A DNA stretch of 64,000 nucleotides, taken from NCBI GenBank assembly GCA_037893225.1, contig JAZGUH010000276.1, forward strand, positions 744,001 through 808,000, read 5' to 3'. Below the pieces are notes generated by a model. That model was not told where the DNA came from, made no database searches, and saw nothing but the letters and a program-made list of their open reading frames with translations. This DNA comes from Hippasteria phrygiana. Taxonomy: Eukaryota; Echinodermata; Asteroidea; Valvatida; Goniasteridae. Below are positions 11,440-63,768 of this stretch, piece after piece (within the stretch, counting starts at the first letter, position 1; the number at the start of each line of letters is the position of its first letter). A program made the position numbers and the translations under genes.

Positions 11440-11795
11440 CTGTTATGGAAGGTGCATTGGATGTTGGGGGGAGGGGTAAAAGATGGGAGGAGCTGTGGTC
11501 ATGGTGGGGTAGGGTTGAGAAAATGGAAGGGGTTGGGATTGTAAACTTATGGGAGCAGAGTTGAGAATGTTGGAGGCACTATAGGGTAGTAAACTGGTGG
11601 GGGAAGGGTTGATTAGATTGAAGGGGCTAGGGTAGTAAACTGGTGGGGGAAGGGTGGACTAGATGGGAGGGGCTGGGGTAGTAAACTGGTGGGGGAAGGG
11701 TTGACTAGATTGAAGGGGCTAGGGTAGTAAACTGGTGGGGGAAGGGTGGACTAGATGGGAGGGGCTGGGGTAGTAAATTGGTGGGGGGGGGGAGG
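11440..11795. repeat. 46-bp minisatellite in an AB dimer arrangement
   Basis: The unit starts GGGTAGTAAACTGGTGGGGG. Two forms alternate from about 11580: one with TTGACTAGATTGAAGGGGCT and one with TGGACTAGATGGGAGGGGCT, giving a period of about 93 bp. Degenerate G-rich copies precede it from 11440. It covers the 3' end of an open frame at 10803-11564. Confidence 0.8.
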
Positions 11796-13399: not shown

Positions 13400-15174
13400 T
13401 ATGGCATTTTAAAAACGTTGCAATATTCGATAATCTACGTATTTTTGTGCGATGTTCAAATATATATGTGCGATGTTTGTCCTAATGTGCGATGTTCAAA
13501 TATATATGTGCGATGTTTGTCATTATATATGCGATGTTCAAATGTATGTGTGCGAAGTTCAAATATATATGTGATGTTTGTCATATATGTGCGATGTTCA
13601 AATTTATATGTGCGATGTTCAAATATATGTGCGATGTTTTGTCAATTTATATTCGAAAATGGAATTGTGGGATATAGTATGGTTTCCAGACCGAAATAGT
13701 ATGAATATTCCTAATAAGTTACATCAGGGACCAGACTACTTTGGACGGTCTATCTGTTGCACTGACCTGGCTGAATCTAGCCCGCAATTCAGCCCGCGAT
13801 TCGCAATAGGGCCCGCGATTCGCCCGATCAGAGCAGCCGCATGTTGAAAACTAGAATCCTTTCGACAAAAGGATTTTTTTTTATGAAATCGCTGGATTCA
13901 GGCAACAAATTTTCAAGAAATGTCAAGAAATTACATACCAATTTTTGCATGAACTTTCAGAATAGGTATGAGCAAAGCTGAACATATTATACTTAACATT
14001 GTTTTATGGGTCTTTTTTATGAAATAATTAGTCGTTTCGTGAGGGCCCATTTCAAAGGGTTCTCTACATCAATTCCTTTCGGCTCAGCACAATAGCTTCT
14101 GTTTGAAAGTAAGTGTACCGCACATGTTTTTAAAAATTCATATTTTTCTTTCGTATTTATAATTGCCACCTTCCTGGGCACACTTAATTTCAGCAAGAGC
14201 TTATTGCAAGAATGGTTTCTGTTCCAATTAGCCGCTTAAAGACGGATCATTTTCGTGAATATCTGTAAATGCGGTATTCGGAGTTTCGTGTGAAATGCCG
14301 TATTTGAAAGAAAGTGTATTACACATATTTTGAAAAATTCATATTTTTCTTTCATATTCATAATTCCCACCTTCCCGGGCACTTTCTCTCAAAGACGGCA
14401 TTTCCAGATATTCATGAAAATGATCCGTCTTTAAGCGGCTAATTGGAACAGAAGCCATTCTTGGAATAGGCCCTTGCTGAAATTAAGTGTGCCCAGGAAG
14501 GTGGCAATTATGAATATGAAAGAAAAATATGAATTATTAAAAACTTGTGCGGTACACTTTCTTTCAAACAGAAGCTATTGTGCTGAGCCGAAAGGAATTG
14601 ATGTAGAGAACCCTTTGAAATGGGCCCTCGCGAAACGACTAATTACTTCATTAAAAAAGACCCATAAAACAATGTTAAGTATAATATGTACAGCTTTGCT
14701 CATACCTATTCTAAAATTTCATGCAAATTGGTATGTAATTTCTTGACATTTTCTAAAAAATCGTTGCCTGAATCCAGTGATTTCATTAAAAAAACAAACT
14801 CCTTTTGTCAAATGGATTCTAGTTTTCAATATGCGGCTGCTCTGATCGGGCGAATCGCGGGCCCTATTGCGAATCGCGGGATGAATCGCGGGCTAGATTC
14901 AGCCAGGTCAGTGCAACAGATAGACCGTCCAAAGTAGTCTGGTCCCTGATGTAACTTATTAGGAATATTCATACTATTTCGGTCTGGAAACCATACTATA
15001 TCCCACAATTCCATTTTGAATATAAATTGAAAAACATCGCACATATTATTTGAACATCGCACATATATGACAAACATCGCACATATATGACAAACATCGC
15101 ACATATAAATTTGAACATCGCACATATAATGACAAACATCGCACACAAATATTGCAATGTTTGACATGCCATAC
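13400..15174. mobile_element. Giant foldback element, ~1.77 kb, arms ~0.8 kb
   Basis: The left arm (13400-14275) and right arm (14396-15174) are reverse complements over almost their whole length, with a loop of about 120 bp. Matching landmarks: TATGGCAT / ATGCCATA at the ends, TAGTATGAATATTCC / GGAATATTCATACTA, GGGCCCGCGATTCGC / GCGAATCGCGGGCCC and GACGGATCATTTTC / GAAAATGATCCGTC. Each arm begins with a 21-22 bp tandem repeat (TGTGCGATGTTCAAATATAT / TGTGCGATGTTTGTC), about 9-10 copies on the left and 6 on the right. An internal ~85-bp module with TTCATATTTTTCTTTC occurs three times (about 14102, 14308 and, inverted, 14489). No transposase. A transcript would form a long hairpin RNA. Confidence 0.92.
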
Positions 15175-30279: not shown

Positions 30280-33200
30280 ACGCAGATTTCTCCCAGCAAT
30301 CAACATCTTTAAAAATTCAGGCATTCTTGGAAAATATCCCACAAAAAAATTCCTGAACAATTTTGTATAAGGTGGGTGAAGGAGGCCAGAGTGTAGAACT
30401 TCAAATACCTGGCTAAGTTTCAGGATTTCTTTATTTCTTATAAACTCCAGACAGAGACACCAAACTAAATACCTCCCCCTCAATGTCATGTTTTTCCTAA
30501 AGACCATCCTGATGCTCTTAACAAAAAATCTGTGCGGTAAACCAATGGCACATTATTTGTATCTGAACAAAATTGGGACATCGAGCCCCACGTAAAGTAA
30601 TGCTGCCAAGGCTCAACGGTTCTAAATCCATCCAAATCCCGTCAAACATTGCAATGGATTCAAGTGGATTTGGGAGGGTTAGGGTTAATCCACAGAACAA
30701 ACCCTGTAATGCATGTCACGCTGCAGATCCCAAAAATGGTGCTATATCCTACAACTTGTATTACCCTAACTGCAAGCAGCTTTTCTAATTCCCGCATTTT
30801 CAGGGGCGAGATCTGAGGAAAAATGAGAAATCCACAAAAGATTGAGAGTCATTTTATTTGTTGCTGAAAAATGCACAAGAAAGCTGCAATTTCTACCAAA
30901 AGATACGGTTCAAAATTGCGCAAATGGTCACCAGAATTAAAAGAAGACTGCTTCAGGTTGCAGAGGTCATATTGGAATGATCAAAACAATTTAAGGACCC
31001 AAAAATCTTCAGGAAATCTGGAAGACGTCTCACTAAAAATCCCGAAATCAGGAGAAACCTCACCGCTGATTTTCCATCTGTGTATTAAAACCTTTCTCTT
31101 GAAGGGATGTGTGCCAAATTATGTCGCAGTTCATCGTGCCTGCCTCGACACCACCCCCCCTTCTCCCACCCCAACCATAATCCACTATGTATGATTCATA
31201 TCATGCTGATCATGTAAACAGCATAACAAGTTATTTCCTGCCAAAAAACATAAAAAAATAACAATGCAACCATGACTCGACCATGAAGTTTATCTATGGC
31301 TGGACTCACCCAAACCCCTCCTACTCAACCCACTTATATCCCTTCCTAAGCAAAGAGGCTGGCCTTATGTCTGGACCACAGGACTTGAAGGCTGGGAACG
31401 TGACCAAGTAAATCACCTGGAACTAATTCATTTAATCCAGAGAAGCTGTGCAGTCCAGACCTGGCCGGGTGACCTCAGCAAGTTGCTGGAGTAGAGGACA
31501 TACTACAATCATGCTCAACCACTCAGGGATCCTTGAGAAAAGTACAACTAGAGACAAATTGAAAGTCCTTGCCTCCATCAGAACATACTGTGACCCCTGG
31601 AGGGGGAGCAGGGTGAGTGTAGGTCAGTTGGGTGGGGTGGAGTGGGACTCAAGGTAGTCACTACCATAATGACTGAAAGAATGTCATAAATCTACTAAAT
31701 TTAGGTGAGGTAATGAAGAGGCTGGGTAGAGGAAAAGGAGTCACGGATCCATTTCAAATCAATTGTCATAATGAAATTCTCCTAGTTAATACATCATTAA
31801 TTCTGCACAGAAGAAAAAGACACAGCACACATAGACGACAAGGCTGGGCCTTCAGTTATATAGCTTTTTTACCTAACCTACCCTACCCCCCCCCCCAATC
31901 CCTCCCCCCCCCCCCCCCCCCCCGAAACAAAAGATAGGAAAAAACTAACAAAAAAATTAAAAATCCACCACTTGCACTGAGAAAAATAATACGATTTATT
32001 AATCAATAAAGGGGGAAAAATTAATTCTGAAAAAAAGAAAAACAAAACTAAGTGGAAAAAAGATCTTTATATTAATCACACTTTTTTGAGTCAACTAATT
32101 TCGAGGATTAGAGTACATGAGTTTTGTCTTTCTGCTGAGACAATGACCATCTAGAAAGGTACATGTAGATATGATTAGATGCAAGTTTGAACAGTAAATG
32201 AAACAACTACACTAAATTGTACACTTGGTGCTGTGAACGTTTACCACATCAAACTGAAACCAATATCCATATTACTAACTAGACCGCTGTACAATACAAA
32301 CACCAATACCTACATTGTACAATCCACCAAACTTGGAAAAATAAATTGGGACGTTCAGGGGAAATCCCTAAACTAGTCAAACGGCTTGGAAATGAGAATG
32401 AGTGGTTAATATGGGAGGAATTCAAACACTCAAAAACACTTGTACCATACCTGGAATTAGGACAAACAGTCCATTCTCATTTCTGCCGGTTAGGATTACT
32501 ACACAAATTGGACATTGTGCCATTCACCGAAGGCAGGTGTAAAAGGAATCACTATTTGATTAATGAATATTCATCACACAGCACAGTGATTGGACTTTGA
32601 AATGAATAATGAGGTTTATTGTAAATGACCATACATGGCAGCAAAGTGAGAACTGCAAAGTGAGATCTAGGTATGCAAAGTCAAAACAGGACATTCAATG
32701 GAATTAGACTCTTCATAGTCAGAGCATAATACCCTAAGCAATGCACACAACCAGGAATTAAGGTACAATGCTTCCTGGTGCCTCATAAACAAAGCTAAAA
32801 ACCCAGCCGAGTTGGATTCTAAAAAACAGTCTGCAGAGGGAAATTCTAGACTACAGATAACAATGTGCAGTTGCCAAAGGGAAATACCCAAGTGTGTACA
32901 GCGAGTTTGGAAGTTTCAGTTTGGGAACTATTTTGGGAATAAACAGTCATTCTGCAAAACTACATTATGAAATGTGCGGAGAGTCATACAAAGTTTTTAG
33001 TTTAACTGTGTCAAGTGTAATGTGTACACTTCTGCAGTTTCACTGGCGTTTCATGGGATTTTTCAGTGACGCTACATTCAATGGTGTGGGGTTGTGGAAA
33101 GATTCAATAGGGGGGGGGGGGGGGGGGGGGGGGGTGTGACCATGCACAGTCTCTAATCTGTTGTGATACATCTAAAGTGATACATGCTCTCTTTACACAT

Positions 33201-33380
33201 TTTTTTTGTTTCATCCCGATTTTTAAAAAACTTTATACAAAAATTATTTGCCTTTAAACGAAACACCAAGTGGGAAAATCTGCAAAGGTTTAGTTATTTA
33301 TTATTAATTCCTGTACAAATGTTGAATTGTTTGAGATTTGAGAATAATTGCATTCCCCGGCTATGCCCCCCCCCCCCCCC
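30280..33380. other. Mostly unique stretch with long C and G runs
   Basis: C runs at 31887 and 31903-31923, a G run at 33109-33134 and a C run at 33366-33384. A TTAGGGTTAA-bearing fragment at 30600-30690 resembles one end of the TTAACCCTAACC MITEs. No gene recognised. Confidence 0.4.
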
Positions 33381-33384
33381 CCCC

Positions 33385-34565
33385 AAGGCTCTACCCCTCC
33401 TGGTCATTCCCTCTTTAGATCTACCCCCTCCAAACATTCCCCCTCCCAGGCTCCACCCCTCCTGGTCATTCCCTCTTTAGATCTACCCCCTCCAAACCAT
33501 TCCCCCTCCCAGGCTCCACCCCTCCTGGTCATTCCCTCTTTAGATCTACCCCCTCCAAACCATTCCCTCTCCCAGGCTCCACCCCTCCTGGTCATTCCCT
33601 CTTTAGATCACTCCCTCCAAACCATTCCCCCTCCCAGGCTTCACCCCTCCTGGTCATTCCCTCTTTAGATCACCCCCTCCAAACCATTCCCCTCCCAGGC
33701 TCCACCCCTCCTGGTCATTCCCTCTTTAGATCTACCCCCTCCAAACCATTCCCCCTCCCAGGCTCCACCCCTCCTGGTCATTCCCTCTTTAGATCACCCC
33801 CTCCAAACCATTCCCCCTCCCAGGCTCCACCCCTCCTGGTCATTCCCTCTTTAGATCTACCCCTCCAAACCATTCCCACTCCCAGGCTCCACCCCTCCTG
33901 GTCATTCCCTCTTTAGATCACCCCCTCCAAACCATTCCCCCTCCCAGGCTCCACCCCTCCTGGTCATTCCCTCTTTAGATCCACCCCCTCCAAACCATTC
34001 CCCTCCCAGGCTCCACCCCTCCTGGTTATTCCCTCTTTAGATCTACCCCCTCCAAACCATTCCCCCTCCCAGGCTCCACCCCTCCTGGTCATTCCCTCTT
34101 TAGATCACCCCCTCCAAACCATTCCCCCTCCCAGGCTCCACCCCTCCTGGTCATTCCCTCTTTAGATCTACCCCCTCCAAACCATTCCCCCTCCCAGGCT
34201 CCACCCCTCCTGGGCATTCCCTCTTTAGATCTACCCCCTCCAAACCATTCCCCCTCCCAGGCCCCACCCCTCCTGGTTATTCCCTCTTTAGATCACCCCC
34301 TCCAAACCATTCCCCCTCCCAGGCTCCACTCCTCCTGGTTATTCCCTCTTTAGATCTACCCCCTCCAAACCATTCACCCTTCCAGGCTCCACCCCTCCTG
34401 ATTATTCCCTCCCCAGATCTACCCCCTCTAAACCATTCCCCCTCCCAGGCTCCACCCTCCTGGTTATTCCCTCTTTAGATCTACCCCCTCCAAACCATTC
34501 ACCATTCCAGGCTCCACCCCTCCTGGTTATTCCCTCCCCAGATCTACCCCCTCCAAACCATTTCC
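33385..34565. repeat. 64-bp minisatellite, about 19 copies
   Basis: The unit contains GGCTCCACCCCTCCTGGTCA, TTCCCTCTTTAGATCTACCC and CCTCCAAACCATTCC. Two main forms differ by TAGATCTACCCCC versus TAGATCACCCCC and alternate in part of the array. Each unit has a CCAGG/CCTGG stem around CTCCACCCCT. Proline-rich frames across it are artefacts. Confidence 0.95.
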
Positions 34566-34667
34566 CAAACTTCGCCAAGTTGCAACACTCCCAGCTAAAT
34601 AAGGGGAGTTGTTCCCCACAGACCCAGTACCAGACTGAACCCTGGCACCAATCTAGTACTACACACC

Positions 34668-34884
34668 CATTCCTGCATATGAAGCAGGATATGGGGGAAA
34701 AGAGACCCCCCCCCCCTCTTTTGTGTTGGTCATTGTGTTCCCGGAATCTCAGGAATTCTATTCAGAAATCTAGGGGGATGTGTTAGATAACAATAATCTG
34801 GAGTGTGCTTAGGGTATAGGGATAAAGGGGGGGGGGGGGGGGGTACCCTTTTCCCCCATATCGTGCAGGGTATCCATTCCTGGG
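34668..34884. mobile_element. C-run element with ATATGGGGGAAAAG inverted repeats
   Basis: Ends CATTCCTGCATATG / ATATCGTGCAGGGTATCC and GATATGGGGGAAAAG / CTTTTCCCCCATATC. The core is CATTGTGTTCCCGGAATCTC with GGAATTCTATTCAGAAATCT. A C run lies near the left arm and a G run (about 34828-34843) near the right arm. Starts about 100 bp after the 64-bp minisatellite. Confidence 0.75.
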
Positions 34885-38109: not shown

Positions 38110-38310
38110 TTGTGGGTGTTCACGTGTTGATCAAAATGTCACTATACACTGAAACACCAGGAGACTTTAAAAAGGAAAACAACCTGTTATCAGTTTTTAT
38201 GAACACATTTTCAAAGTGAATTAACAAAGAAAACTGGCATGAGCGGGATTCGAACCTGCGACCTCCGGAACACTGTACCGGCACTCTACCAACTGAGCTA
38301 TCTTGCCCTA
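38110..38310 (-). mobile_element. tRNA-derived SINE
   Basis: The head at 38235-38307 (minus) has box A TAGCTCAGTTGG and box B GGTTCGAATCC, a 6/7 acceptor stem and a T arm. The anticodon stem has a T-T mismatch and a non-T position 33. The body follows with CCAGTTTTCTTTGTTAATTC and ACTTTGAAAATGTGTTC. Decayed relatives are at about 173-245 and 42800-42845. Confidence 0.6.
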
Positions 38311-38651
38311 TGTTGGCGGTCTCCCAAATTGTCAGTTGGCGGTCTCCAAAATCGTCAGTTTTTATGAAAGTTTGTGACAAGAACAGACATTAATTGCATA
38401 CATAAAACAATAAAAATACATCCAGATGGGTGGGTGGGGACATTTTGTTGTTTGAGGGGGTGGAGACAAGGTGTGTGGAAAGTTCTCGCCCCAAATGATT
38501 TGAAATAAAGATTGTTACCTGGTTGACATGTAGTTGAAAAGGAGAATTCTCTGTCTCAAAATGACAACAGAAAGCGACCTGTATGAACAAATGGAACTAT
38601 TTAGACAATTTGTCATTCTAGTGCACATCTCTATAACAAGTACCACATTTT

Positions 38652-47740: not shown

Positions 47741-49133
47741 TAAAGAGGAACTAAAACGGCAATTTCTTTTTGACTTTTTTAACTTATCTGATAGTTTATG
47801 CCTCCCCAAAACTAATGTAACAAGTCTCATAATTCTGAAAAAATAAATAAAATGTTTTTGAACCTTTTCTTTCTGAGCCACTTTGACTCGATTCAGAAAA
47901 GGCCGAGGTCAACTGCGTGCCGTATCGCGCGAGTATTGACGTATACGTATAGAAACATATGACGTCACTGTATTATACGACAATGTTTTACGTAGAGTCT
48001 GTACGTATTTTTTTGTCTAAGGCTAGTATTACTTGCTGTACTTTTTGCTCATGATTCAGGAGTAACACTACGATAAACATATTTTAAAGTGTTGACATCT
48101 TTGTGAGACACATTTAGAATTGGGGTTGTAGGCTTGTTCTTGCTGAAAAGCTAGTTATGAGTCATACTTTCCTTTGTTTGCAGTCGGCTTTTATTGGAAC
48201 TTGCGTGGTGAGTTGTGTGTGAGCTGATGCTATACTCTAGTCTGGCGACTTTGCTTATGCAGCCCTCATAAGGACCCGCGCCTTCTCAGAACAATACACA
48301 CAATTTCTGTTATAAGGTACCAGACTCAATCGCATGTAGCGCATGCGGTACCGTGCGTGTACAATGCATGTTGAGTCAAGCGAGCGTGGACAGGGAGACG
48401 GCCGGGGCTCTGGCTGCTCAAGACGGCAACCGCAGGCAACGTCGTCGCGGTGGTGCGCGTGAGTCCGGGGCACGATTGGAATGCTCGGTGCCTAGAGTTG
48501 GAATGGCTCCAGCCTTCAAACGGAACTGTGCCTTCAAACCCAGCTGAGTTTTCATACTAACACTATCATCTATACAGTCTTTCGCGAAATGTTCTGCATA
48601 TATTTTCGACCATTTCGACAGCCCAAAATCAGATATTGTATTGTCTACAAAGCGGACCCACTGTCGCCTTTGAGCTCCATTTAGCACTGGGAATCGCAGT
48701 AAGGTTAAGTCAGGGTTTTTGTCGATGTTCCTCGTGCAACCCCCAACTACACACGATCGAGGCATAATGATTATCTCAGAACCATGCTCACACTGAAATA
48801 ATATCAAAATTAGACAAAATAGACGGGAAAACAGGGGAGAAAGGTCGACAAAAACTCTTCAGCAGCATCAACTCCACGTACGTACATGCATAGTGTTTGG
48901 CTGTAGCATCAACCGACTCTACACGTGTACGTCACGGGGTCACGTACATACATTTAACATACATAATGAGCTTTCGCGAAACAGGATAAATGGTTCAGAA
49001 TAACAACCCTTTTTTTTTAATAAAAAAATTTCTCTCGTCTGCAAACTAATCTCCATCAGTTAAAAGAGTATTTAAACTGTCGGAAAAGTCCAAAAAGTCA
49101 AAAACAAAATTTCCGTTTTAGTTCCTCTTTAAG
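47741..49133. mobile_element. Inverted-repeat element carrying a THAP-domain ORF
   Basis: Ends TTTAAAGAGGAACTAAAACGGCAATTT and, inverted, AAATTTCCGTTTTAGTTCCTCTTTAA, continued by TTTTGACTTTTT / AAAAAGTCAAAA. The interior is GC-richer than its surroundings and holds the THAP ORF at 48418-48765. THAP domains occur in P-element-type transposases and in host factors. No transposase catalytic domain is visible, so this may be a deletion derivative. Confidence 0.7.
48418..48765 (-). pseudogene. THAP-type zinc-finger ORF, one zinc ligand lost
   Basis: 115 codons from ATG at 48765. The THAP layout is nearly complete: start MPRSCVVGGC (Cys5, Cys10), FP at about residues 25-26, W36, then KIYAEHF at about 54-60 and LKAGAIPT near 83-90, the equivalent of the AVPT box. 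A C2CH THAP finger needs Cys-x2-His; here residue 56 is Tyr (TAT), with His59 kept, so zinc binding should fail. The remaining C-terminal part is Arg/Pro-rich and unlike known domains. It probably derives from a P-like element and is decayed. A divergent intact host exon is the alternative. Confidence 0.65.
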
Positions 49134-54103: not shown

Positions 54104-54395
54104 CCTTTGCTTGGAAAGGACAGACAGATTTTTTGACCCTTACTTGGAAAGGACAGACAGATTTGTTAAACTTTGCTTGGAAAGGACAGACAGATTTTTA
54201 AAACTTTGGTTGAAAAGGAGACAGATTTGTTAAACTTTGGTTGGAAAGGACAGACAGATTTTTAAAACTTTGCTTGGAAAGGACAGACAGATTTGTTAAA
54301 CTTTGCTTGGAAAGGACAGACAGATTTGTTAAACTTTGCTTGAAAAGGACAGACAGATTTGTTAAACTTCGTTTGGAAAGGACAGACAGATTTTT
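54104..54395 (-). repeat. 33-bp minisatellite just after the QARS1 stop codon
   Basis: About nine imperfect copies of a 33-bp unit with the core TTGGAAAGGACAGACAGATT (plus strand). Because 33 is a multiple of three, the minus strand stays open in one frame as an 11-residue repeat (LSVLSKQSLTN), but no start or splice site suggests translation. The array begins about 38 bp beyond the QARS1 stop, so it is probably 3' UTR sequence. Confidence 0.85.
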
Positions 54396-54432
54396 AGTCC
54401 CAGATAAAATCCTGCTGTAAACCTGCTGACAC

Positions 54433-54483
54433 TCAGTTCTTGCCCACATCCTCCTTGAGTGCTACAGTTTGATTGAAGATGAT
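54433..54483 (-). CDS. QARS1: QARS1 terminal coding exon with stop
   Basis: 51 nt coding: IIFNQTVALKEDVGKN then TGA at 54433-54435. It corresponds to the conserved GlnRS C-terminal tail of the form FNRTVTLKED. The acceptor TTTCCCCACAG has a good pyrimidine tract. The 3' UTR should run to lower coordinates, into the 33-bp minisatellite. I saw no clear AATAAA on this strand within the next few hundred bases. Confidence 0.94.
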   Translation of the reverse strand: MIFNQTVALKEDVGKN

Positions 54484-57400
54484 CTGTGGGGAAACCAAAG
54501 CAAGAAGCACAATCAAACTGATGAGGCCAAACAAAAATAGTTGTGTTGACCTCCGCGACCGACCCTAAAAGTCACAAAAGTCTGGTTGCGTTTTATTTAT
54601 TTATTTTTTTAAGGAATTTTCAAAATCTCACCTATTCCAGATCCCGTACAAAATGAACAAATTTAAAAAAATAATTGTCTTTAAAGGTAGTGTACATGAT
54701 TGGTCATTGTTGCAATTTTGAGAAATGGGCGGATTTGGGCGTTAGCATTATATAGGAAATATCGTTCCACTGACCTGTTCAAAGTTTTGCGTGGATGGAT
54801 GGCAAATAAAATGAAAGAAATACGGCGCTCATTTTCAACCGTCGGGCAGATGATAGCCTTTAGTCAAGGCGCACGTGGCTAACTGGACGCGTGACGCGCC
54901 CCGAATGTCAGCATGTCCGGGCGCGCCACTCATCCGGGTAGCACGTGCGCCTTGACTAAAGGCTACAAGACAGTTTTCCAACGATTTCCAGCTGGAAATC
55001 GTTGGGAAAACAATATAGATTTCCACTTTTCTTGACGACGACAGCACACCTAGTGCCATCCTTTCACAGGATGATTGAGACTACTGTTAACTGACAGTCT
55101 AGTAAGGTATTTCATAATTCAGTAAAAAAAAATTGGAGGATTACCAATCGTGTACACTACCTTTAAAGGCAGCTACGACAGCATCTCACTTTTAAATAAG
55201 CTTACTTTTTGCCTCCCGACTTCAGAGAGTTACACGACATGTAGTTGATCATGGATGGTTAAAAAAAATAAAAAATTCAACCAACCGACCCTCCTCCCTC
55301 TCGATTTTTCCCATTTAAGGGCAACAAGTTTTGTGGGTTTTTTGGCCTGAGCTTCAAGTATCTGCCGTCCTATCTTTCTCTTACATAACCTGAATTCCTG
55401 CAGAAATCCTGTCTTTGGAAAGACATTGACAAATTGATTTCCTCTCGCTTTTGTAATTCGAAGCAAGAACAAAGTAATTGGCTACGTCTTTTAATCATTG
55501 TACGTATTTGACAATTTCGATGACCTACCTTGTTTGGCGTCGAGTCCGGATCAACAGAGAAGTAGCCCTTCCTCTCAAACTGAAACTTGTCGTAGACTTG
55601 AGCTCCCCTGACTGACTGATCAATCAATGCATCAGGTATGATCCTCAGAGAGTCCTAATCAGAAACAAAACACACAACATCTTAAATGCATGTGGAGAAG
55701 AGATTTCTAGCCGTCCTGACTTTCTATGTGACAGACATTCCAGCAATGCAAACCTTGCTTTGTACCCGATTACGATCAGTAAAAACCTTCTTCAAACTTG
55801 GCCCTGCCCCTAGCCTAGAACTCCTCTCCTATACACTCCTTACAATCAATCCATTTGACCCCATTATAATCTTACCTAATTACAATCAATCACAAAACCT
55901 CTTACTTCCTCAACAGAGGCGTAGCAATGGGGGGGGGGGGGGGGGGTGGGGGGCGGGAGGGGGGGGCACAGGCTGTGGGGGGGGCACAGATTCCCTCCCC
56001 TACACACTACTTATTTAAACCTTCTGTATCTTACCGGATTTCAGTCAGTTAAGAAACCTCCTACTTCCTCATACTAGGCTCCACCCCTAGCCTAGATTCC
56101 CTCTCCTACACACTACTTATTTAAACCTTCTGTATCTTACCTGATTACAGTCAGTTAAGAAACCTCCTACTTCCTCATACTAGGCTCCACCCCTAGCCTA
56201 GATTCCCTCTCCTACACACTACTTATTTAAACCTTCTGTATCTTACCTGATTACAGTCAGTTAAGAAACCTCCTACTTCCTCATACTAGGCTCCACCCCT
56301 AGCCTAGATTCCCTCTCCTACACACTACTTATTTAAACCTTCTGTATCTTACCTGATTACAGTCAGTTAAGAAACCTCCTACTTCCTCATACTAGGCTCC
56401 ACCCCTAGCCTAGATTCCCTCTCCTACACACTACTTATTTAAACCTTCTGTATCTTTAACCTGATTACAGTCAGTTAAGAAACCTCCTACTTCCTCATAC
56501 TAGGCTCCACCCCTTGCCTAGATTTCCTCCCCTACACACTACTTATTTAAACCTTCTGTATCTTACCTGATTACAGTCAGTTAAGAAACCTCCTACTTCC
56601 TCATACTAGGCTCCACCCCTAGCCTAGATTTCCTCCCCTACACACTACTTATTTAAACCTTCTGTATCTTACCTGATTACAGTCAGTTAAGAAACCTCCT
56701 ACTTCCTCATACTAGGCTCCACCCCTAGCCTAGATTTCCTCCCCTACACACTACTTATTTAAATCTTCTGTATCTTACCTGATTACAGTCAGTTAAGAAA
56801 CCTCCTACTTCCTCATACTAGGCTCCACCCCTAGCCTAGATTCCCTCCCCTACACACTACTTATTTAAACCTTCTGTATCTTTAACCTGATTACAGTCAG
56901 TTAAGAAACCTCCTACTTCCTCATACTAGGCTCCACCCCTAGCCTAGATTTCCTCCCCTACACCCTACTTATTTAAATCTTCTGTATCTTACCGGATTTC
57001 AGTCAGTTAAGAAACCTCCTACTTCCTCATACTAGGCTCCACCCCTAGCCTAGATTCCCTCTCCTACACACTACTTATTTAAACCTTCTGTATCTTACCT
57101 GATTACAGTCAGTTAAGAAACCTCCTACTTCCTCATACTAGGCTCCACCCCTAGCCTAGATTCCCTCCCCTACACACTACTTATTTAAACCTTCTGTATC
57201 TTTAACCTGATTACAGTCAGTTAAGAAACCTCCTACTTCCTCATACTAGGCTCCACCCCTAGCCTAGATTTCCTCCCCTACACCCTACTTATTTAAATCT
57301 TCTGTATCTTACCGGATTTCAGTCAGTTAAGAAACCTCCTACTTCCTCATACTAGGCTCCACCCCTAGCCTAGATTCCCTCCCCTACACACTACTTATTT

Positions 57401-60400
57401 AAATCTTCTGTATCTTACCGGATTTCAGTCAGTTAAGAAACCTCCTACTTCCTCATACTAGGCTCCACCCCTAGCCTAGATTCCCTCCCCTACACACTAC
57501 TTATTTAAATCTTCTGTATCTTACCGGATTTCAGTCAGTTAAGAAACCTCCTACTTCCTCATACTAGGCTCCACCCCTAGCCTAGATTCCCTCCCCTACA
57601 CACTACTTATTTAAACCTTCTGTATCTTACCTGATTACAGTCAGTTAAGAAACCTCCTACTTCCTCATACTAGGCTCCACCCCTAGCCTAGATTCCCTCC
57701 CCTACACACTACTTATTTAAACCTTCTGTATCTTTAACCTGATTACAGTCAGTTAAGAAACCTCCTACTTCCTCATACTAGGCTCCACCCCTAGCCTAGA
57801 TTTCCTCCCCTACACCCTACTTATTTAAATCTTCTGTATCTTACCGGATTTCAGTCAGTTAAGAAACCTCCTACTTCCTCATACTAGGCTCCACCCCTAG
57901 CCTAGATTCCCTCCCCTACACACTACTTATTTAAACCTTCTGTATCTTTAACCCGATTACAGTCAGTTAAGAAACCTCCTACTTCCTCATACTAGGCTCC
58001 ACCCCTAGCCTAGATTTCCTCCCCTACACCCTACTTATTTAAATCTTCTGTATCTTACCGGATTTCAGTCAGTTAAGAAACCTCCTACTTCCTCATACTA
58101 GGCTCCACCCCTAGCCTAGATTCCCTCCCCTACACACTACTTATTTAAATCTTCTGTATCTTACCGGATTTCAGTCAGTTAAGAAACCTCCTACTTCCTC
58201 ATACTAGGCTCCACCCCTAGCCTAGATTCCCTCCCCTACACACTACTTATTTAAATCTTCTGTATCTTACCGGATTTCAGTCAGTTAAGAAACCTCCTAC
58301 TTCCTCATACTAGGCTCCACCCCTAGCCTAGATTCCCTCCCCTACACACTACTTATTTAAACCTTCTGTATCTTACCTGATTACAGTCAGTTAAGAAACC
58401 TCCTACTTCCTCATACTAGGCTCCACCCCTAGCCTAGATTCCCTCCCCTACACACTACTTATTTAAACCTTCTGTATCTTTAACCTGATTACAGTCAGTT
58501 AAGAAACCTCCTACTTCCTCATACTAGGCTCCACCCCTAGCCTAGATTTCCTCCCCTACACCCTACTTATTTAAATCTTCTGTATCTTACCGGATTTCAG
58601 TCAGTTAAGAAACCTCCTACTTCCTCATACTAGGCTCCACCCCTAGCCTAGATTCCCTCCCCTACACACTACTTATTTAAACCTTCTGTATCTTTAACCC
58701 GATTACAGTCAGTTAAGAAACCTCCTACTTCCTCATACTAGGCTCCACCCCTAGCCTAGATTTCCTCCCCTACACCCTACTTATTTAAATCTTCTGTATC
58801 TTACCGGATTTCAGTCAGTTAAGAAACCTCCTACTTCCTCATACTAGGCTCCACCCCTAGCCTAGATTCCCTCCCCTACACACTACTTATTTAAACCTTC
58901 TGTACCTTACCTGATTACAGTCAGTTAAGAAACCTCCTACTTCCTCATACTAGGCTCCACCCCTAGCCTAGATTCCCTCCCCTACACACTACTTATTTAA
59001 ACCTTCTGTATCTTTAACCTGATTACAGTCAGTTAAGAAACCTCCTACTTCCTCATACTAGGCTCCACCCCTAGCCTAGATTTCCTCCCCTACACCCTAC
59101 TTATTTAAATCTTCTGTATCTTACCGGATTTCAGTCAGTTAAGAAACCTCCTACTTCCTCATACTAGGCTCCACCCCTAGCCTAGATTCCCTCCCCTACA
59201 CACTACTTATTTAAACCTTCTGTATCTTACCTGATTACAGTCAGTTAAGAAACCTCCTACTTCCTCATACTAGGCTCCACCCCTAGCCTAGATTCCCTCC
59301 CCTACACACTACTTATTTAAACCTTCTGTATCTTTAACCTGATTACAGTCAGTTAAGAAACCTCCTACTTCCTCATACTAGGCTCCACCCCTAGCCTAGA
59401 TTCCCTCCCCTACACACTACTTATTTAAACCTTCTGTATCTTACCTGATTACAGTCAGTTAAGAAACCTCCTACTTCCTCATACTAGGCTCCACCCCTAG
59501 CCTAGATTCCCTCCCCTACACACTACTTATTTAAACCTTCTGTATCTTTAACCTGATTACAGTCAGTTAAGAAACCTCCTACTTCCTCATACTAGGCTCC
59601 ACCCCTAGCCTAGATTTCCTCCCCTACACCCTACTTATTTAAATCTTCTGTATCTTACCTGATTACAGTCAGTTAAGAAACCTCCAGGGACCTCTGATGG
59701 ATCTTCTGGGTTCTTGTGCTTAAACCTGTTAAAATGATATTGAATTAAATGACATTTGAAAACCATTGAAGGGCAAAACCCAATATTGAATTTGAAAACC
59801 ACTCGTGATTGCAAAGATCTCTAGAATATTATAAGGACTGGAAATACAGCCAACTTCAAATGGCAAGATTCTGCCCTGTCTAACTCGAATAAATCGCAGA
59901 CACGAAGACAGTTTCAAGCAATTGCCAGATTTGTGCCTAAAGTTAGACAGGCTATGCCGAACTTCTGGCAGAAGACCTGCCCAGCCTCAAGCACCAAACC
60001 TGTACCACATCCAATTCAATTCACTCTGGCAAGATTCTGAAATTGTGCATGTTTGTGAAGACTGCACCTTATCCTTGCTAGATCTCTGTTCCTGGTATCA
60101 TAAAATGTCTCCTTTCAGAGGCTCTCATCTTCAATATGTCGAACAGGTTCGACAATTATTCAATATTTGAAGAAACTGTTGCATTTCTGCCACTCTATGG
60201 TCCAGAGTTGTGATCCATTCAGTCACAAATCACTTGCAATTCAGTCACAAGTCCATCACAAGTCTGGTCTCAAGCCAAGTCACAAGCTATTCAAATGAAC
60301 TATGAAAAAAGTATTCCTTTGTCATTGTTTATCCCCTGCAGCTTATGAGCTGGCTTGCGATTGGCTTGCGATTGGCTTGATTACAACTCTGCTATGGTCA

Positions 60401-61738
60401 GATGCAACATCAACTGAAACAAACAGCAGAAATTTAAGTGAAATTTATATTTCAAGTGAACCTTGGATCTTCAACTTACAGTCTTCCATAGACCCTGACT
60501 TCACACTTGATGGGCTCAGATACCCAATGGATGAAGGCCTTGGGTTTAGATGTAACATCCACTGATTGAGACGTCACCTTTAACTCTATCACTCGACCCG
60601 AGTCATCTCTGACTATGGACTGTAGTGTCAGGACTTGTGCTGCATACTTCAGGCCGACCGTCTGGGTTGGGGTCAACCTGCGATATCCCTTCTCAGGATT
60701 CTGGAAATGAAATCAGTTTAATCAGATTAATTAATCCTCTATCAGAATGGTATAAAATAAATAGTAGAGCTGTGCATTCGAACCGGAAGTACCCACACTA
60801 ATGCCAGGAACCAGTTCTAGATCATGAAATTGAGTACCCTAAACCTAATTAACATATTACTTCGTAATTTCTTGGACACTGTAAACAAGTTTTTGAATGT
60901 CATTTGTGGGGGTTTTCAAAATGAAGACCAGAGTACATGGGAAAACAAGACAGATTAACGTCTATGACGCTTACGAAAATGCAATTTACACCGTAAAGCT
61001 ACCCAGCTCACTGTACACACTTGCATCTTGCTTCATTGATGCACAGATGTGGTAGTATTAACCCTTTTGCATGCACCTAGTGGGTTAGGGTTAACATGCG
61101 GACCTTTACGAACAATATGCACAGCAATTTCCAAGATTTAATTTTTTTAGATCGGTTTTCTTTAACCCTCCCTCTCTCGGTGCCAAAATGGAGCCAACTA
61201 CCCGACCTATCAAAACCTATCGAGTTTCAGGTTGAGACACACAAGCTGTTGGAGAGGAAGGGCTTAGGTTTTTTGATAGGTTATGATAGTTATAACAGTA
61301 GGAGGGTTAATTTAGGAAGAGATTCATCAGTGGATATTTTTGATAGGCAAAAAAACCAAAAAAACTGCTCAAATTTGATTTTTCGGTATTACTTAAATCC
61401 TAACACCATTTGCAATAATTGCCTTTACGTGGCAACCAGACAGAAGGCGCAAAGTAGAAAGAACGCAAACAACTTGGAAAAAGACAGTAGAAAAAGGAAA
61501 GAAAGGTTACAGAATGGAGGACGTGCAAGGAAGCTACGGGATGTGGACGGGACACACAAATGGAAACAGAGTGTGATGGCCGTACGTGCTACAGGGTGCG
61601 AAGAGGATAGGAGGAGGAGGAATGTTGAGTTACCTCACTGAAGTCACTCTGCTCGATGTAGATGACGGAAGTGAAGAGCAACTTACGTGAGCCCTTACTG
61701 CTATCATGAGGGATGACAGGAACACTCAACTTCTCCGG
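54433..61738 (-). CDS. QARS1: Glutaminyl-tRNA synthetase, cytosolic (3' part: last five exons)
   Basis: GlnRS charges tRNA-Gln with glutamine in the cytoplasm. The window holds its C-terminal anticodon-binding beta-barrel region, about 189 residues. Coding blocks are 61634-61738, 60480-60700, 59659-59725, 55529-55654 and 54433-54483, all on the minus strand with GT-AG borders, and their phases join without a frameshift. Family-typical pieces in order are [49 protein letters not shown] and a final FNQTVALKEDVGK before TGA. These match the end of animal GlnRS as I know the family. The catalytic Rossmann domain with its HIGH and KMSK-type motifs is not in view and should lie beyond the right edge. 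Every intron carries a different repeat, most notably the 106-bp array at 55655-59658. Confidence 0.95.
54680..55167. mobile_element. MITE with TTTAAAGGTAGTGTAC ends, in a QARS1 intron
   Basis: Terminal inverted repeats TTTAAAGGTAGTGTAC...GTACACTACCTTTAAA extend about 25 bp, through ATGATTGGT/ACCAATCG. Inside is a second, GC-rich hairpin at 54847-54965 with stem TAGCCTTTAGTCAAGGCGCA. Related copies lie at 23990-24208 and, inverted, at 45327-45545. They share the GATTTCCAGC-GGAAATCG palindrome, ATTTCCACTTTTCTTGA and a CACAGGAT block. No coding capacity. Confidence 0.85.
55529..55654 (-). CDS. QARS1: QARS1 penultimate exon
   Basis: 126 nt, 42 codons, phase 0 at both ends. It begins DSLRIIPDALIDQSV and ends [13 protein letters not shown], with the GlnRS signature DKFQFER between. 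The acceptor is CTGATTAG|GAC and the donor is AAG|GTAGGTCA. It is intact despite lying next to the expanded array. Confidence 0.96.
55655..59658 (-). repeat. QARS1 intron filled by a 106-bp tandem array carrying exon-end and splice-donor copies
   Basis: About 35 units run from roughly 56033 to 59658, counting the authentic exon junction as the last. Two more diverged units sit at about 55790-55925. On the minus strand each unit has GAGGTTTCTTAACTGACTG, then one of three donor variants: AATCAG|GTAAGA (type B), AAATCCG|GTAAGA (type A) or AATCAG|GTTAAAG (type C, 2 bp longer). I count about 12 A, 13 B and 10 C units. Each unit also has a 7-bp stem, CTAGGCT/AGCCTAG, around a CCACCCCT loop. A poly(G) stretch (55930-55975) interrupts the left, more diverged edge. 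The intron acceptor at 55655 (TTTCTGATTAG) is intact. Confidence 0.95.
59659..59725 (-). CDS. QARS1: QARS1 exon, third from the end; source of the donor copied in the array
   Basis: 67 nt. It completes the split Leu codon and then reads [22 protein letters not shown]. The acceptor is TTTTAACAG and the donor is CAG|GTAAGATAC. The last ~25 coding bases (59659-59683, encoding GGFLTDCNQ) and the donor belong to the first unit of the 106-bp array. This exon end is therefore repeated more than 30 times in the adjoining intron. Confidence 0.95.
60196..60400. mobile_element. Short inverted-repeat element in a QARS1 intron
   Basis: Ends match as TATGGTCCAGAGTTGTGATC and ATTACAACTCTGCTATGGTC. The interior is rich in CACAAGTC and GCTTGCGATTGG motifs. 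It resembles the element at 12140-12405 in its AGTTGTAGTC end and its runs of CAAGTC/GACTTG. Confidence 0.55.
60480..60700 (-). CDS. QARS1: QARS1 exon, fourth from the end
   Basis: 221 nt, starting in phase 0 at AAT CCT GAG AAG and ending two bases into a Leu codon. It encodes NPEKGYRRLTPTQTVGL at its start and [21 protein letters not shown] near its end. The KAFIHWV block is strongly conserved in GlnRS. The acceptor is ATTTCCAG and the donor is CT|GTAAGTTG. Confidence 0.96.
61162..61310. mobile_element. TTAA-ended MITE, family A (in a QARS1 intron)
   Basis: 149 bp between TTAA sites: TTAACCCTCCCTCTCTCGG at the left and GTAGGAGGGTTAA at the right. It is nearly identical to 28579-28729. TTAA ends suggest mobilisation by a piggyBac-type transposase, by inference. 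Confidence 0.85.
61634..61738 (-). CDS. QARS1: QARS1 exon, fifth from the end
   Basis: 105 nt, 35 codons, phase 0 at both ends. It reads PEKLSVPVIPHDS at the start and VIYIEQSDFSE at the end, the start of the anticodon-binding barrel. The acceptor is TTGTACAG before CCG GAG and the donor is GAG|GTAACT. The donor is weaker than those of the other exons here. The polypyrimidine tract ahead of the acceptor is short. Confidence 0.93.
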
Positions 61739-61862
61739 CTGTACAAGATAAATCAGTCAGAAAAAGCATTTCAATTCTCTTTGTAAGTAGATGTGTAATA
61801 TGGACACATGGTTCCGTCACATGCATTGATTTTGTTACTTTTCGGTCCAAGGCTTGATAATT

Positions 61863-62870: not shown

Positions 62871-63039
62871 ATTTGCATACGTTTCTAAATCGCACTGACG
62901 CCTTAAGGGTTCACGTTTTTCTGAAATTTGACAATAGCAATCAAGCACTGGCACATTATTAATACATGACCATAAATGTCAATATGTTATGATACAATTT
63001 GGGACATGTCGTTTGACCTTTGATGGGAAACAATTTTGT

Positions 63040-63227
63040 TTAGCTCTCCAATGAATTGAAAGGCTACACATAAATAGTCAAAAGATGGAATTTTTCCGTC
63101 GGGGTTGATGTAAATTAGAACAGGGATGTTTTCTCTTTTTGCCCTGTTATGTATACTCACTGTATACTCAGTGCTTTCCGAGAGCCTGTGTGACAAAAAT
63201 CACAGGCTTACTCAGGTGGGATTCGAA
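63040..63227 (-). mobile_element. tRNA-derived SINE, minus copy, head truncated
   Basis: On the minus strand it starts near a GGTTCGAATCC-like box B remnant (GATTCGAAC on plus at about 63220), followed by TAAGCCTGTGATTTTTGTCA and the body with AACAGGGCAAAAAGAGAAAA. Two plus-strand copies of the same body follow at once. Confidence 0.6.
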
Positions 63228-63356
63228 CAGGCTCTCGGAAAGCACCGAGTAAACAGTGCTTCATATATTACGTCGGGACAGGGCAAAAGAGAAAACATAT
63301 CCATTCTAATTTACATCATCCCCGACGCAAAAATTCCATCTTCTGACCGATTACGC
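63228..63356 (+). mobile_element. Partial SINE body, plus copy
   Basis: Begins at ACAGGCTCTCGGAAAGCACC and continues ATTACGTCGGGACAGGGCAA to CCCCGACG. Same body as 63476-63590, lacking the tRNA-like head. It faces the minus copy at 63040-63227, so the pair folds back. Confidence 0.6.
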
Positions 63357-63397
63357 GGTACCCGCTGCTGCATTGGATTTAAATTGGCCAGCCCACT

Positions 63398-63590
63398 CCG
63401 GCAAGCTCGGTGGTCGAGTGGTTAAGACGTCTGCACTAGTAGCAGGAAGTCGTGGGTTCGAATCCCACCCGAGCAAGCCTGTGATTTTTTTCACACAGGC
63501 TCTCAAAAATGCACTGAGTATACAGTGCTTTATACATTACGTCGGGACAGGTCAAAGGAGAAAACATCTCTGTTCTAATTTACACATAAA
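63398..63590 (+). mobile_element. tRNA-derived SINE with recognisable tRNA-like head
   Basis: The head (63404-63475) folds as a cloverleaf: 6-bp acceptor GCTCGG/CCGAGC, D arm GTC/GAC, anticodon stem TCTGC/GCAGG and T arm GTGGG-TTCGAAT-CCCAC. Position 33 of the loop is C rather than T and the variable loop is short. I therefore read it as a SINE promoter head, not a working tRNA. The body contains AAGCCTGTGA and ATTACGTCGGGACAGG. A TA-flanked MITE starts 3 bp later. Confidence 0.65.
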
Positions 63591-63592
63591 TA

Positions 63593-63768
63593 CAGTCGAA
63601 CACCTTTATAACAAGGTCCTTGGGACTTTACAATTTACCTTGTTATAACAGGTACCTTATATTATCAGTAATGGAAAACAAAGAAAAACAAAGACTCTGG
63701 ATCTATTTTTGTCCTTGTTATAAGCAGGATGTTGTATTAACAGTGCTCTTATTATCAGGGTTCGACTG
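63593..63768. mobile_element. Tigger/pogo-like MITE, CAGTCGAAC ends, TA duplication
   Basis: 176 bp, CAGTCGAAC...GTTCGACTG flanked by TA on both sides. Nearly identical to 24976-25150 throughout, for example ACAAGGTCCTTGGGACTTTA and TATTATCAGTAATGGAAAAC. Non-coding. Confidence 0.85.

What the first reader, a model, noticed from the sequence alone, without database searches (positions are those of the whole stretch)
55780..59700. An intronic tandem array made of copies of an exon end plus its 5' splice donor
Seen directly: the QARS1 exon at 59659-59725 ends ...AACTGACTGTAATCAG|GTAAGATAC. This junction, with about 25 coding bases, is part of the 106-bp unit that repeats about 34 more times through the next 3.6 kb of intron. 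A primary transcript would carry about 35 look-alike donors before one acceptor. Use of any later donor would add codons and hit the in-frame TAA present in each unit (GTA AGA TAC AGA AGG TTT AAA TAA). The gene must therefore choose the first donor, or lose transcript to decay. Inference: the array could act as a U1 snRNP sponge, tune QARS1 output by copy number, or protect against early polyadenylation. I know of no described case of this kind.
Basis: partly seen in the sequence, partly recalled or inferred. Interest (0 to 1): 0.9.

Follow-up and report, generated by a model that had tools for sequence, protein, structure and literature searches.

The report
Exon-end minisatellite in starfish QARS intron
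In a glutaminyl-tRNA synthetase gene of what is most likely a starfish, the last 27 bases of one exon plus the start of the next intron, splice donor included, stand in 35 tandem copies; arrays of this type are known from lancelets and from a human gene, and the extra donors are most likely a tolerated passenger whose accidental use would give doomed transcripts.

Summary
On the minus strand a QARS exon (59725-59659) ends CAG|GTAAGATAC, and this exon end plus donor is copy 1 of an array of 35 units of 106 or 108 bp filling about 92% of a 4,004-nt intron. The 34 intronic donors differ: 12 keep the exon's donor or better, 12 have CCG|GTAAGA, 10 a disrupted GTTAAA. Two diverged old copies lie beyond the array. 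The host is most likely a starfish: the QARS piece is 84% identical to Patiria, 83% to Asterias, 70% to lancelet. "No described case" is wrong: lancelet "mirages" are minisatellites across exon-intron boundaries, and the human CBS 31-bp VNTR, c.1444_1467+7(16_21), repeats an exon end plus donor. Best reading: a mirage-type minisatellite grown by unequal exchange. Splicing likely takes the first donor; a later donor would add VRYRRFK-stop and would be expected to trigger decay. Nothing here supports a U1 sponge or protection from polyadenylation. My searches of open-licence papers showed no echinoderm case. RNA and population data were not available.

The parts
59659..59725 (-). QARS exon A (67 nt), coding ...FKHKNPEDPSEVPGGFLTDCNQ; its last 27 nt (59685-59659) are the exonic part of unit 1
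   Evidence: tblastn with Patiria and Asterias QARS; acceptor and donor read; GGFLTDCNQ identical in Asterias QARS, GGFVTDCNQ in Patiria
55655..59658 (-). 4,004-nt intron, GTAAGATA...GATTAG; array part 59658-55988 is 3,671 nt, about 92%
   Evidence: length, array end (the script printed 92.5% because it counted the last unit as full length)
55988..59685 (-). Tandem array: 35 units of 106 or 108 bp, the last cut short; pairwise identity 92.6-100%, mean 96.7% over the first 34
   Evidence: TRF; units; identity
55740..55903 (-). Two diverged old copies outside the array: first copy 20/27 exon-like and 61/79 intron-like aligned positions match, donor TAG|GTAAGAT kept; second partial (38 of 50 aligned positions), donor decayed
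   Evidence: local score 138 against a largest shuffled score of 58 in 500 shuffles
55929..55987 (-). Poly-C-rich stretch that cuts off unit 35 and lies between the array and the old copies
   Evidence: sequence
55529..55654 (-). QARS exon B (DSLRII...STPNK), the acceptor exon of the intron
54433..54483 (-). Last QARS coding exon (IIFNQTVALKEDVGKN stop)
60480..60700 (-). QARS exon upstream of exon A
61634..61735 (-). QARS exon further upstream, start only approximate
   Evidence: Pfam tRNA-synt_1c_C, E 3.7e-08, on the ORF 61592-61756
33377..34566 (-). Separate 62-bp array sharing a 41-column core (exact 13-mer AGGGGTGGAGCCT) with the intronic half of the QARS unit, same strand
   Evidence: TRF; alignment score reached by 1 of 1000 shuffles; all 53 window matches of the 13-mer with up to 2 mismatches lie in these two arrays

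Best explanation
This is an exon-boundary minisatellite of the 'mirage' type: 35 tandem copies of the last 27 nt of a QARS exon, most likely of a starfish, with its splice donor and some 79 nt of intron, which likely began as a small tandem duplication and grew by unequal exchange, with splicing predicted to use only the first donor. Inferred steps: exon definition would pick donor 1, because it closes a 67-nt exon, while decoy 2 is weak and the next strong decoy (unit 3) would need a 281-nt exon. A transcript spliced from a later donor would gain VRYRRFK and a stop 82 nt or more before the next junction, would lose the last 58 residues, and would be expected to undergo nonsense-mediated decay. 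The array is then mostly a tolerated passenger with, at most, a small cost to QARS output. Shown by sequence: the copies, their three donor classes, the intronic haplotype that the exon copy shares with seven intronic copies, and the old diverged copies at the far edge.
For: Units and order. Donor classes and scores. The exon's own unit shares its intronic haplotype with seven class-C units and differs from them at only two exon-like sites, which points to recent exchange or copying between exon copy and array. Edge copies are diverged while inner ones are 92.6-100% alike, the pattern reported for lancelet mirages. Exon-like and intron-like parts of the first old copy have diverged about equally (20/27 and 61/79), so the exon-like part shows no extra constraint. 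The true acceptor scores 8.4; the best other AGs in the intron score 4.49 and 4.3. Lancelet authors report that mirages do not disturb regular splicing (passages).
Against: No RNA evidence. 24 of 34 decoys (12 exon-type, 12 CCG-type) score above two of the gene's own other donors (7.93 and 6.69), so they are not weak in themselves. Changes inside the 9-nt donor window are over-represented among the array's variants: 4 of 10 events, binomial P 0.007; counting only weakening events, 3 of 10, P 0.047 (events counted). The window was chosen after seeing the data, so this is only a hint, but it would fit selection against decoys rather than pure neutrality. The intronic half shares a core with another array about 21 kb away, so unit growth may have been seeded by a minisatellite core rather than by the exon.
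Confidence: 0.72

Rival explanations
1. Copy-number rheostat: decoy donors divert a fraction of transcripts into decay, so array length sets QARS output, as suggested by work on the human CBS 31-bp VNTR.
For: Same topology as CBS c.1444_1467+7(16_21); the title of Lievers 2001 links that VNTR to reduced CBS activity (seen only in reference lists). Strong decoys; every decoy product would meet the early-stop rule (arithmetic).
Against: No expression or allele data here; QARS is expected to be essential, so a strong effect would be costly; the nearest decoy (unit 2) is weak.
Confidence: 0.14
2. Recursive-splicing ladder: each CAG|GT junction acts first as acceptor and then as donor, so the intron is removed in steps and every step restores the same junction.
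For: Class-A junctions read TTCTTAACTGACTGTAATCAG|GTAAGA, near the Drosophila consensus (Y)nNCAG|GTAAGT (passage). After the true acceptor and one AG behind a C run, they are the best-scoring AGs in the intron. Use of such a step would leave the mRNA unchanged.
Against: Weak pyrimidine tract: score 4.3 against 6.5-10.3 for four real acceptors of the gene, only the 88th percentile of background AGs; 14 of the 35 copies lack the AG (12 CCG, 2 CGG) and the class-B copies lack a good donor; a 4-kb intron hardly needs stepwise removal.
Confidence: 0.05
3. U1 snRNP sponge or shield against early polyadenylation.
For: 24 good U1 sites of the A or C class among the 34 intronic copies.
Against: No AATAAA or ATTAAA in the intron; one intron could hardly titrate an abundant snRNP (general knowledge).
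Confidence: 0.03
4. The copy number is an assembly artefact.
For: A 3.7-kb array of near-identical units is hard to assemble; reads not available.
Against: Ten variable columns in a mosaic order, 12 haplotypes among 34 units, and old diverged copies argue for a real array; only the exact count is doubtful.
Confidence: 0.06

Closest known systems
Amphioxus 'mirages' (Adh3, TnC, globin genes BflGb6 and BflGb9, PGBD5)
   Same: Minisatellite-like tandem copies across an exon-intron boundary, many but not all with AG/GT signals, inner copies homogenised and cluster edges excluded from this, either exon side possible (passages of PMC3087553 and PMC3902484)
   Different: Lancelet, not starfish; 6 and 3 repeat units of 150-160 bp in the two BflGb6 haplotypes, one duplicate of 157 bp in BflGb9, 10-72 bp units in Adh3 as quoted there, copy number of Adh3 not seen; here 35 units, 3.7 kb, three donor classes
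Human CBS 31-bp VNTR, c.1444_1467+7(16_21)
   Same: Unit = exon end plus start of intron with the donor, repeated 16-21 times (passages of PMC2630376; table entry 'exon 13-intron 13' in PMC1395315)
   Different: 24 exonic and 7 intronic nt per unit by that notation, against 27 and 79 here; polymorphism and an activity effect are reported there, nothing known here
Internal tandem repeats at exon-intron boundaries in human segmental duplications, and intron gain by tandem duplication
   Same: Tandem copies at a boundary can create new introns or activate cryptic splice sites (passages of PMC2812944; PMC4974935 seen only in a search listing)
   Different: Those cases make novel introns; here the array lies inside an intron of a conserved gene
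Recursive (ratchet) splice sites
   Same: CAG|GTAAG junctions inside an intron (passages of PMC5126111)
   Different: Poor pyrimidine tract, short intron, tandem copies; no evidence of use

Membership tests
mirage (lancelet exon-boundary minisatellite) | Tandem units that span an exon-intron boundary, with the true boundary as one of them | tested here: met
   Unit 1 is the exon end and donor
mirage (lancelet exon-boundary minisatellite) | Many but not all copies keep AG/GT signals | tested here: met
   12 of 34 intronic copies exon-type or better, 12 CCG|GTAAGA, 10 GTTAAA
mirage (lancelet exon-boundary minisatellite) | Inner copies homogenised, edge copies diverged | tested here: met
   92.6-100% among 34 units; first old flank copy matches at 81 of 106 aligned positions; at the exon side the edge copy is not diverged
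mirage (lancelet exon-boundary minisatellite) | Regular mRNA splicing not disturbed | not testable with these tools
   No RNA data for this species
mirage (lancelet exon-boundary minisatellite) | Length instability between haplotypes or in soma | not testable with these tools
   One assembly only
mirage (lancelet exon-boundary minisatellite) | Found in cephalochordates (range of the cases I saw, not part of the definition) | tested here: not met
   Encoded 149-residue QARS piece 84% Patiria, 83% Asterias, 70% Branchiostoma
CBS-type exon-intron VNTR with dosage effect | Exon end plus donor repeated | tested here: met
CBS-type exon-intron VNTR with dosage effect | Copy number varies and changes gene output | not testable with these tools
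   No population or expression data
recursive splice site | Pyrimidine tract plus NCAG|GTAAGT | tested here: inconclusive
   Junction TCAG|GTAAGA, acceptor score 4.3 against 6.5-10.3 for real ones
recursive splice site | Splicing intermediates at the site | not testable with these tools
   No RNA data

The most novel reading that the evidence does not exclude
The array is a heritable splicing rheostat in an essential starfish gene: up to 24 strong decoy donors compete with the true one, CAG|GT junctions may also serve as harmless ratchet steps, decoy donors are being eroded by selection, and gene conversion from class-C copies, which carry TGA in the exon frame, into the exon would keep creating null QARS alleles.
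Probability: 0.13. Interest if true: 0.8.

Novelty: new member of a known kind. Interest (0 to 1): 0.45.

Why it matters
It would take exon-boundary minisatellites beyond lancelets and one human gene into echinoderms, with more copies than the lancelet globin and human CBS cases whose numbers I saw. It is a natural test of how the spliceosome picks the first of many similar donors, and of intron growth by tandem duplication. Because twelve copies carry a TGA in the exon's frame, it also predicts a local source of null alleles in a gene expected to be essential.

Tried and rejected
Lancelet origin: my first guess, from the likeness to mirages; rejected because the QARS piece is 84% and 83% identical to two starfish and 70% to Branchiostoma.

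Other arrays in the window as further mirages: the 46-bp unit (11582-11787, both strands) and the 33-bp unit (54105-54396, one strand tried) show no likeness to the QARS unit (387 or more of 1000 shuffles do as well); the other rows of the TRF table were not compared. The 62-bp array shares a core, but I could not place it against an exon: of 10 ORFs from the window given to Pfam, none of them at that array, only the THAP and QARS ones matched.

RNA structure: one unit and a three-unit stretch fold no better than shuffles (z -0.93 and -0.87).

Higher-order repeat order: lag 3 not above shuffles (581 of 2000 shuffles reach it); lags 5 and 7 look higher but were not tested.

Not in print: lancelet and minisatellite terms (9 papers, 20 of 48 listed), boundary repeats (3 papers), sea star terms (20 of 56 listed), echinoderm terms (1 paper, on lancelet PGBD5) showed no echinoderm case by title and start of abstract; the unlisted papers were not seen. 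The library holds open-licence papers only.

Full report
What is there. The window carries the end of a glutaminyl-tRNA synthetase gene on the minus strand. Patiria QARS aligns to five pieces: 61735-61634, 60703-60479, 59745-59647 (exon 59725-59659), 55669-55526 (exon 55654-55529) and 54486-54436; Asterias QARS finds the same exons. The joined exons read in one frame to the stop. A protein search with the last 149 residues put Patiria miniata (84%) and Asterias rubens (83%) first and Branchiostoma floridae (70%) next (120 best of 2,228 hits listed), and five proteins from four other echinoderm classes gave 65-68%. So the host is most likely a starfish, of a species I cannot name.

The array. 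Exon A ends GGAGGTTTCTTAACTGACTGTAATCAG|GTAAGATAC. The same 27 exonic bases, the donor and the rest of a 79-base intronic stretch recur head to tail: 35 units, 106 bp or, with a TA inserted at the donor, 108 bp, the last one cut short. TRF gives 55988-59685 and 34.7 copies. The array takes 3,671 of the intron's 4,004 nt, about 92% (lengths). Among the first 34 units pairwise identity is 92.6-100%, mean 96.7%, with ten variable columns and 12 haplotypes (unit 35 was left out).

Donor classes. Including the exon's own unit: 13 of class A (CAG|GTAAGA, one with GTAAGG), 12 of class C (TGAAATCCG|GTAAGA) and 10 of class B (GTTAAA) out of 35, in the order ABABACBACBCBACCCBCBACCCBACBAAABAAAC. By an approximate donor matrix recalled from memory, class A scores 10.97 (11.29 in unit 8), C 8.76 and B 3.62, or 1.3 in two units. 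Four donors of the gene, exon A's included, score 7.93, 6.69, 10.97 and 9.86. So 24 of 34 decoys score above two real donors. CAGGTAAG occurs 13 times on this strand in 64 kb, all 13 in the array with its exon copy, and once on the other strand.

What wrong choices would do. The first intron bases read VRYRRFK and a stop. Any later donor would therefore end the protein early and drop the last 58 residues; with the nearest decoy the stop lies 82 nt before the junction (arithmetic), beyond the usual 50-55 nt limit for decay (general knowledge). Exon lengths for donors 1 to 5 would be 67, 173, 281, 387 and 495 nt, which favours donor 1 under exon definition (inference). The only strong acceptor in the intron is the true one, 8.4; the best others score 4.49 and, for the unit junctions that keep AG, 4.3.

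History. Beyond a poly-C-rich stretch lie two old copies; the first matches 20 of 27 exon-like and 61 of 79 intron-like aligned positions and keeps TAG|GTAAGAT; the second is partial and its donor has decayed. Unit 1 has the same intronic haplotype as seven class-C units and differs from them at two exon-like sites only. This points to recent exchange or copying between the exon copy and the array. Class C reads GAC TGA in the exon's frame, a stop, so conversion of the exon to class C would truncate the protein (sequence). The exon keeps TGT, and DCNQ is identical in Patiria and Asterias. Ten mutational events separate the units (the TA insert as one event, two different changes at one site as two); four fall in the 9-nt donor window (P 0.007), three of them weakening (P 0.047). 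This window was picked after looking, and the two class-C changes always occur together, so it is a hint of selection against decoys and no more.

A shared core. The intronic half, GAGGGAAT..CTAGGCTAGGGGTGGAGCCTAG, aligns with the unit of a separate 62-bp array at 33377-34566; 1 of 1000 shuffles scores as high. All 53 matches of AGGGGTGGAGCCT with up to two mismatches lie in these two arrays, same strand (34 in the QARS array, 19 in the other; 1.2 expected). The intronic half may thus have a minisatellite ancestry of its own.

Compared with what is known. The lancelet literature describes minisatellite-like duplications of intron-exon boundaries called mirages, in Adh3, troponin C and globin genes, with similar imperfect repeats in PGBD5; the authors report regular splicing despite copied AG/GT signals, and homogenised inner copies with cluster edges excluded (passages). 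The original Adh paper was not held. The human CBS VNTR is written c.1444_1467+7(16_21): an exon end with its donor, 16-21 times (passages), and a paper title ties it to reduced activity (reference lists). This array meets the defining features of a mirage that I could test. It differs in host, in copy number and in the spread of donor classes.

Verdict. Real, striking and mostly already explained as a kind; a new member, most likely in a new phylum. Whether it affects QARS is open and testable.

Noticed in passing
33377-34566: 62-bp tandem array (19 copies), G-rich on the minus strand, that shares an exact 13-mer and a 41-column core with the intronic half of the QARS unit; no gene placed around it.
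   Followed up: partly
54105-54396: 33-bp tandem array (8.8 copies) starting about 36 nt after the QARS stop codon on the coding strand, so probably in the 3' untranslated region: a second array in the same gene.
   Followed up: partly
13446-13656 and 15028-15145: Two arrays 1.4 kb apart whose units look like reverse complements of each other (TGTGCGATGTTTG / CAAACATCGCACA), seen in the TRF table only.
   Followed up: no
38235-38360: tRNA-Thr gene (minus) with about two copies of a 23-bp repeat just upstream of its 5' end (38312-38360).
   Followed up: no
48421-48858: Open frame on the minus strand with a THAP domain (Pfam PF05485, E 7.4e-10), with the segment MPRSCVVGGCTRN.
   Followed up: no
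63404-63476: tRNA-Leu (TAG) on the plus strand; the ORFs around it (63000-63600) show repeated look-alike peptides, perhaps duplicated or tRNA-derived repeat sequence.
   Followed up: no
33110-33134, 31904-31923, 33366-33384, 34827-34843, 55929-55946: Several pure G or C runs of 17-25 bases, two of them at or near the edges of the two minisatellite arrays that share a core.
   Followed up: no
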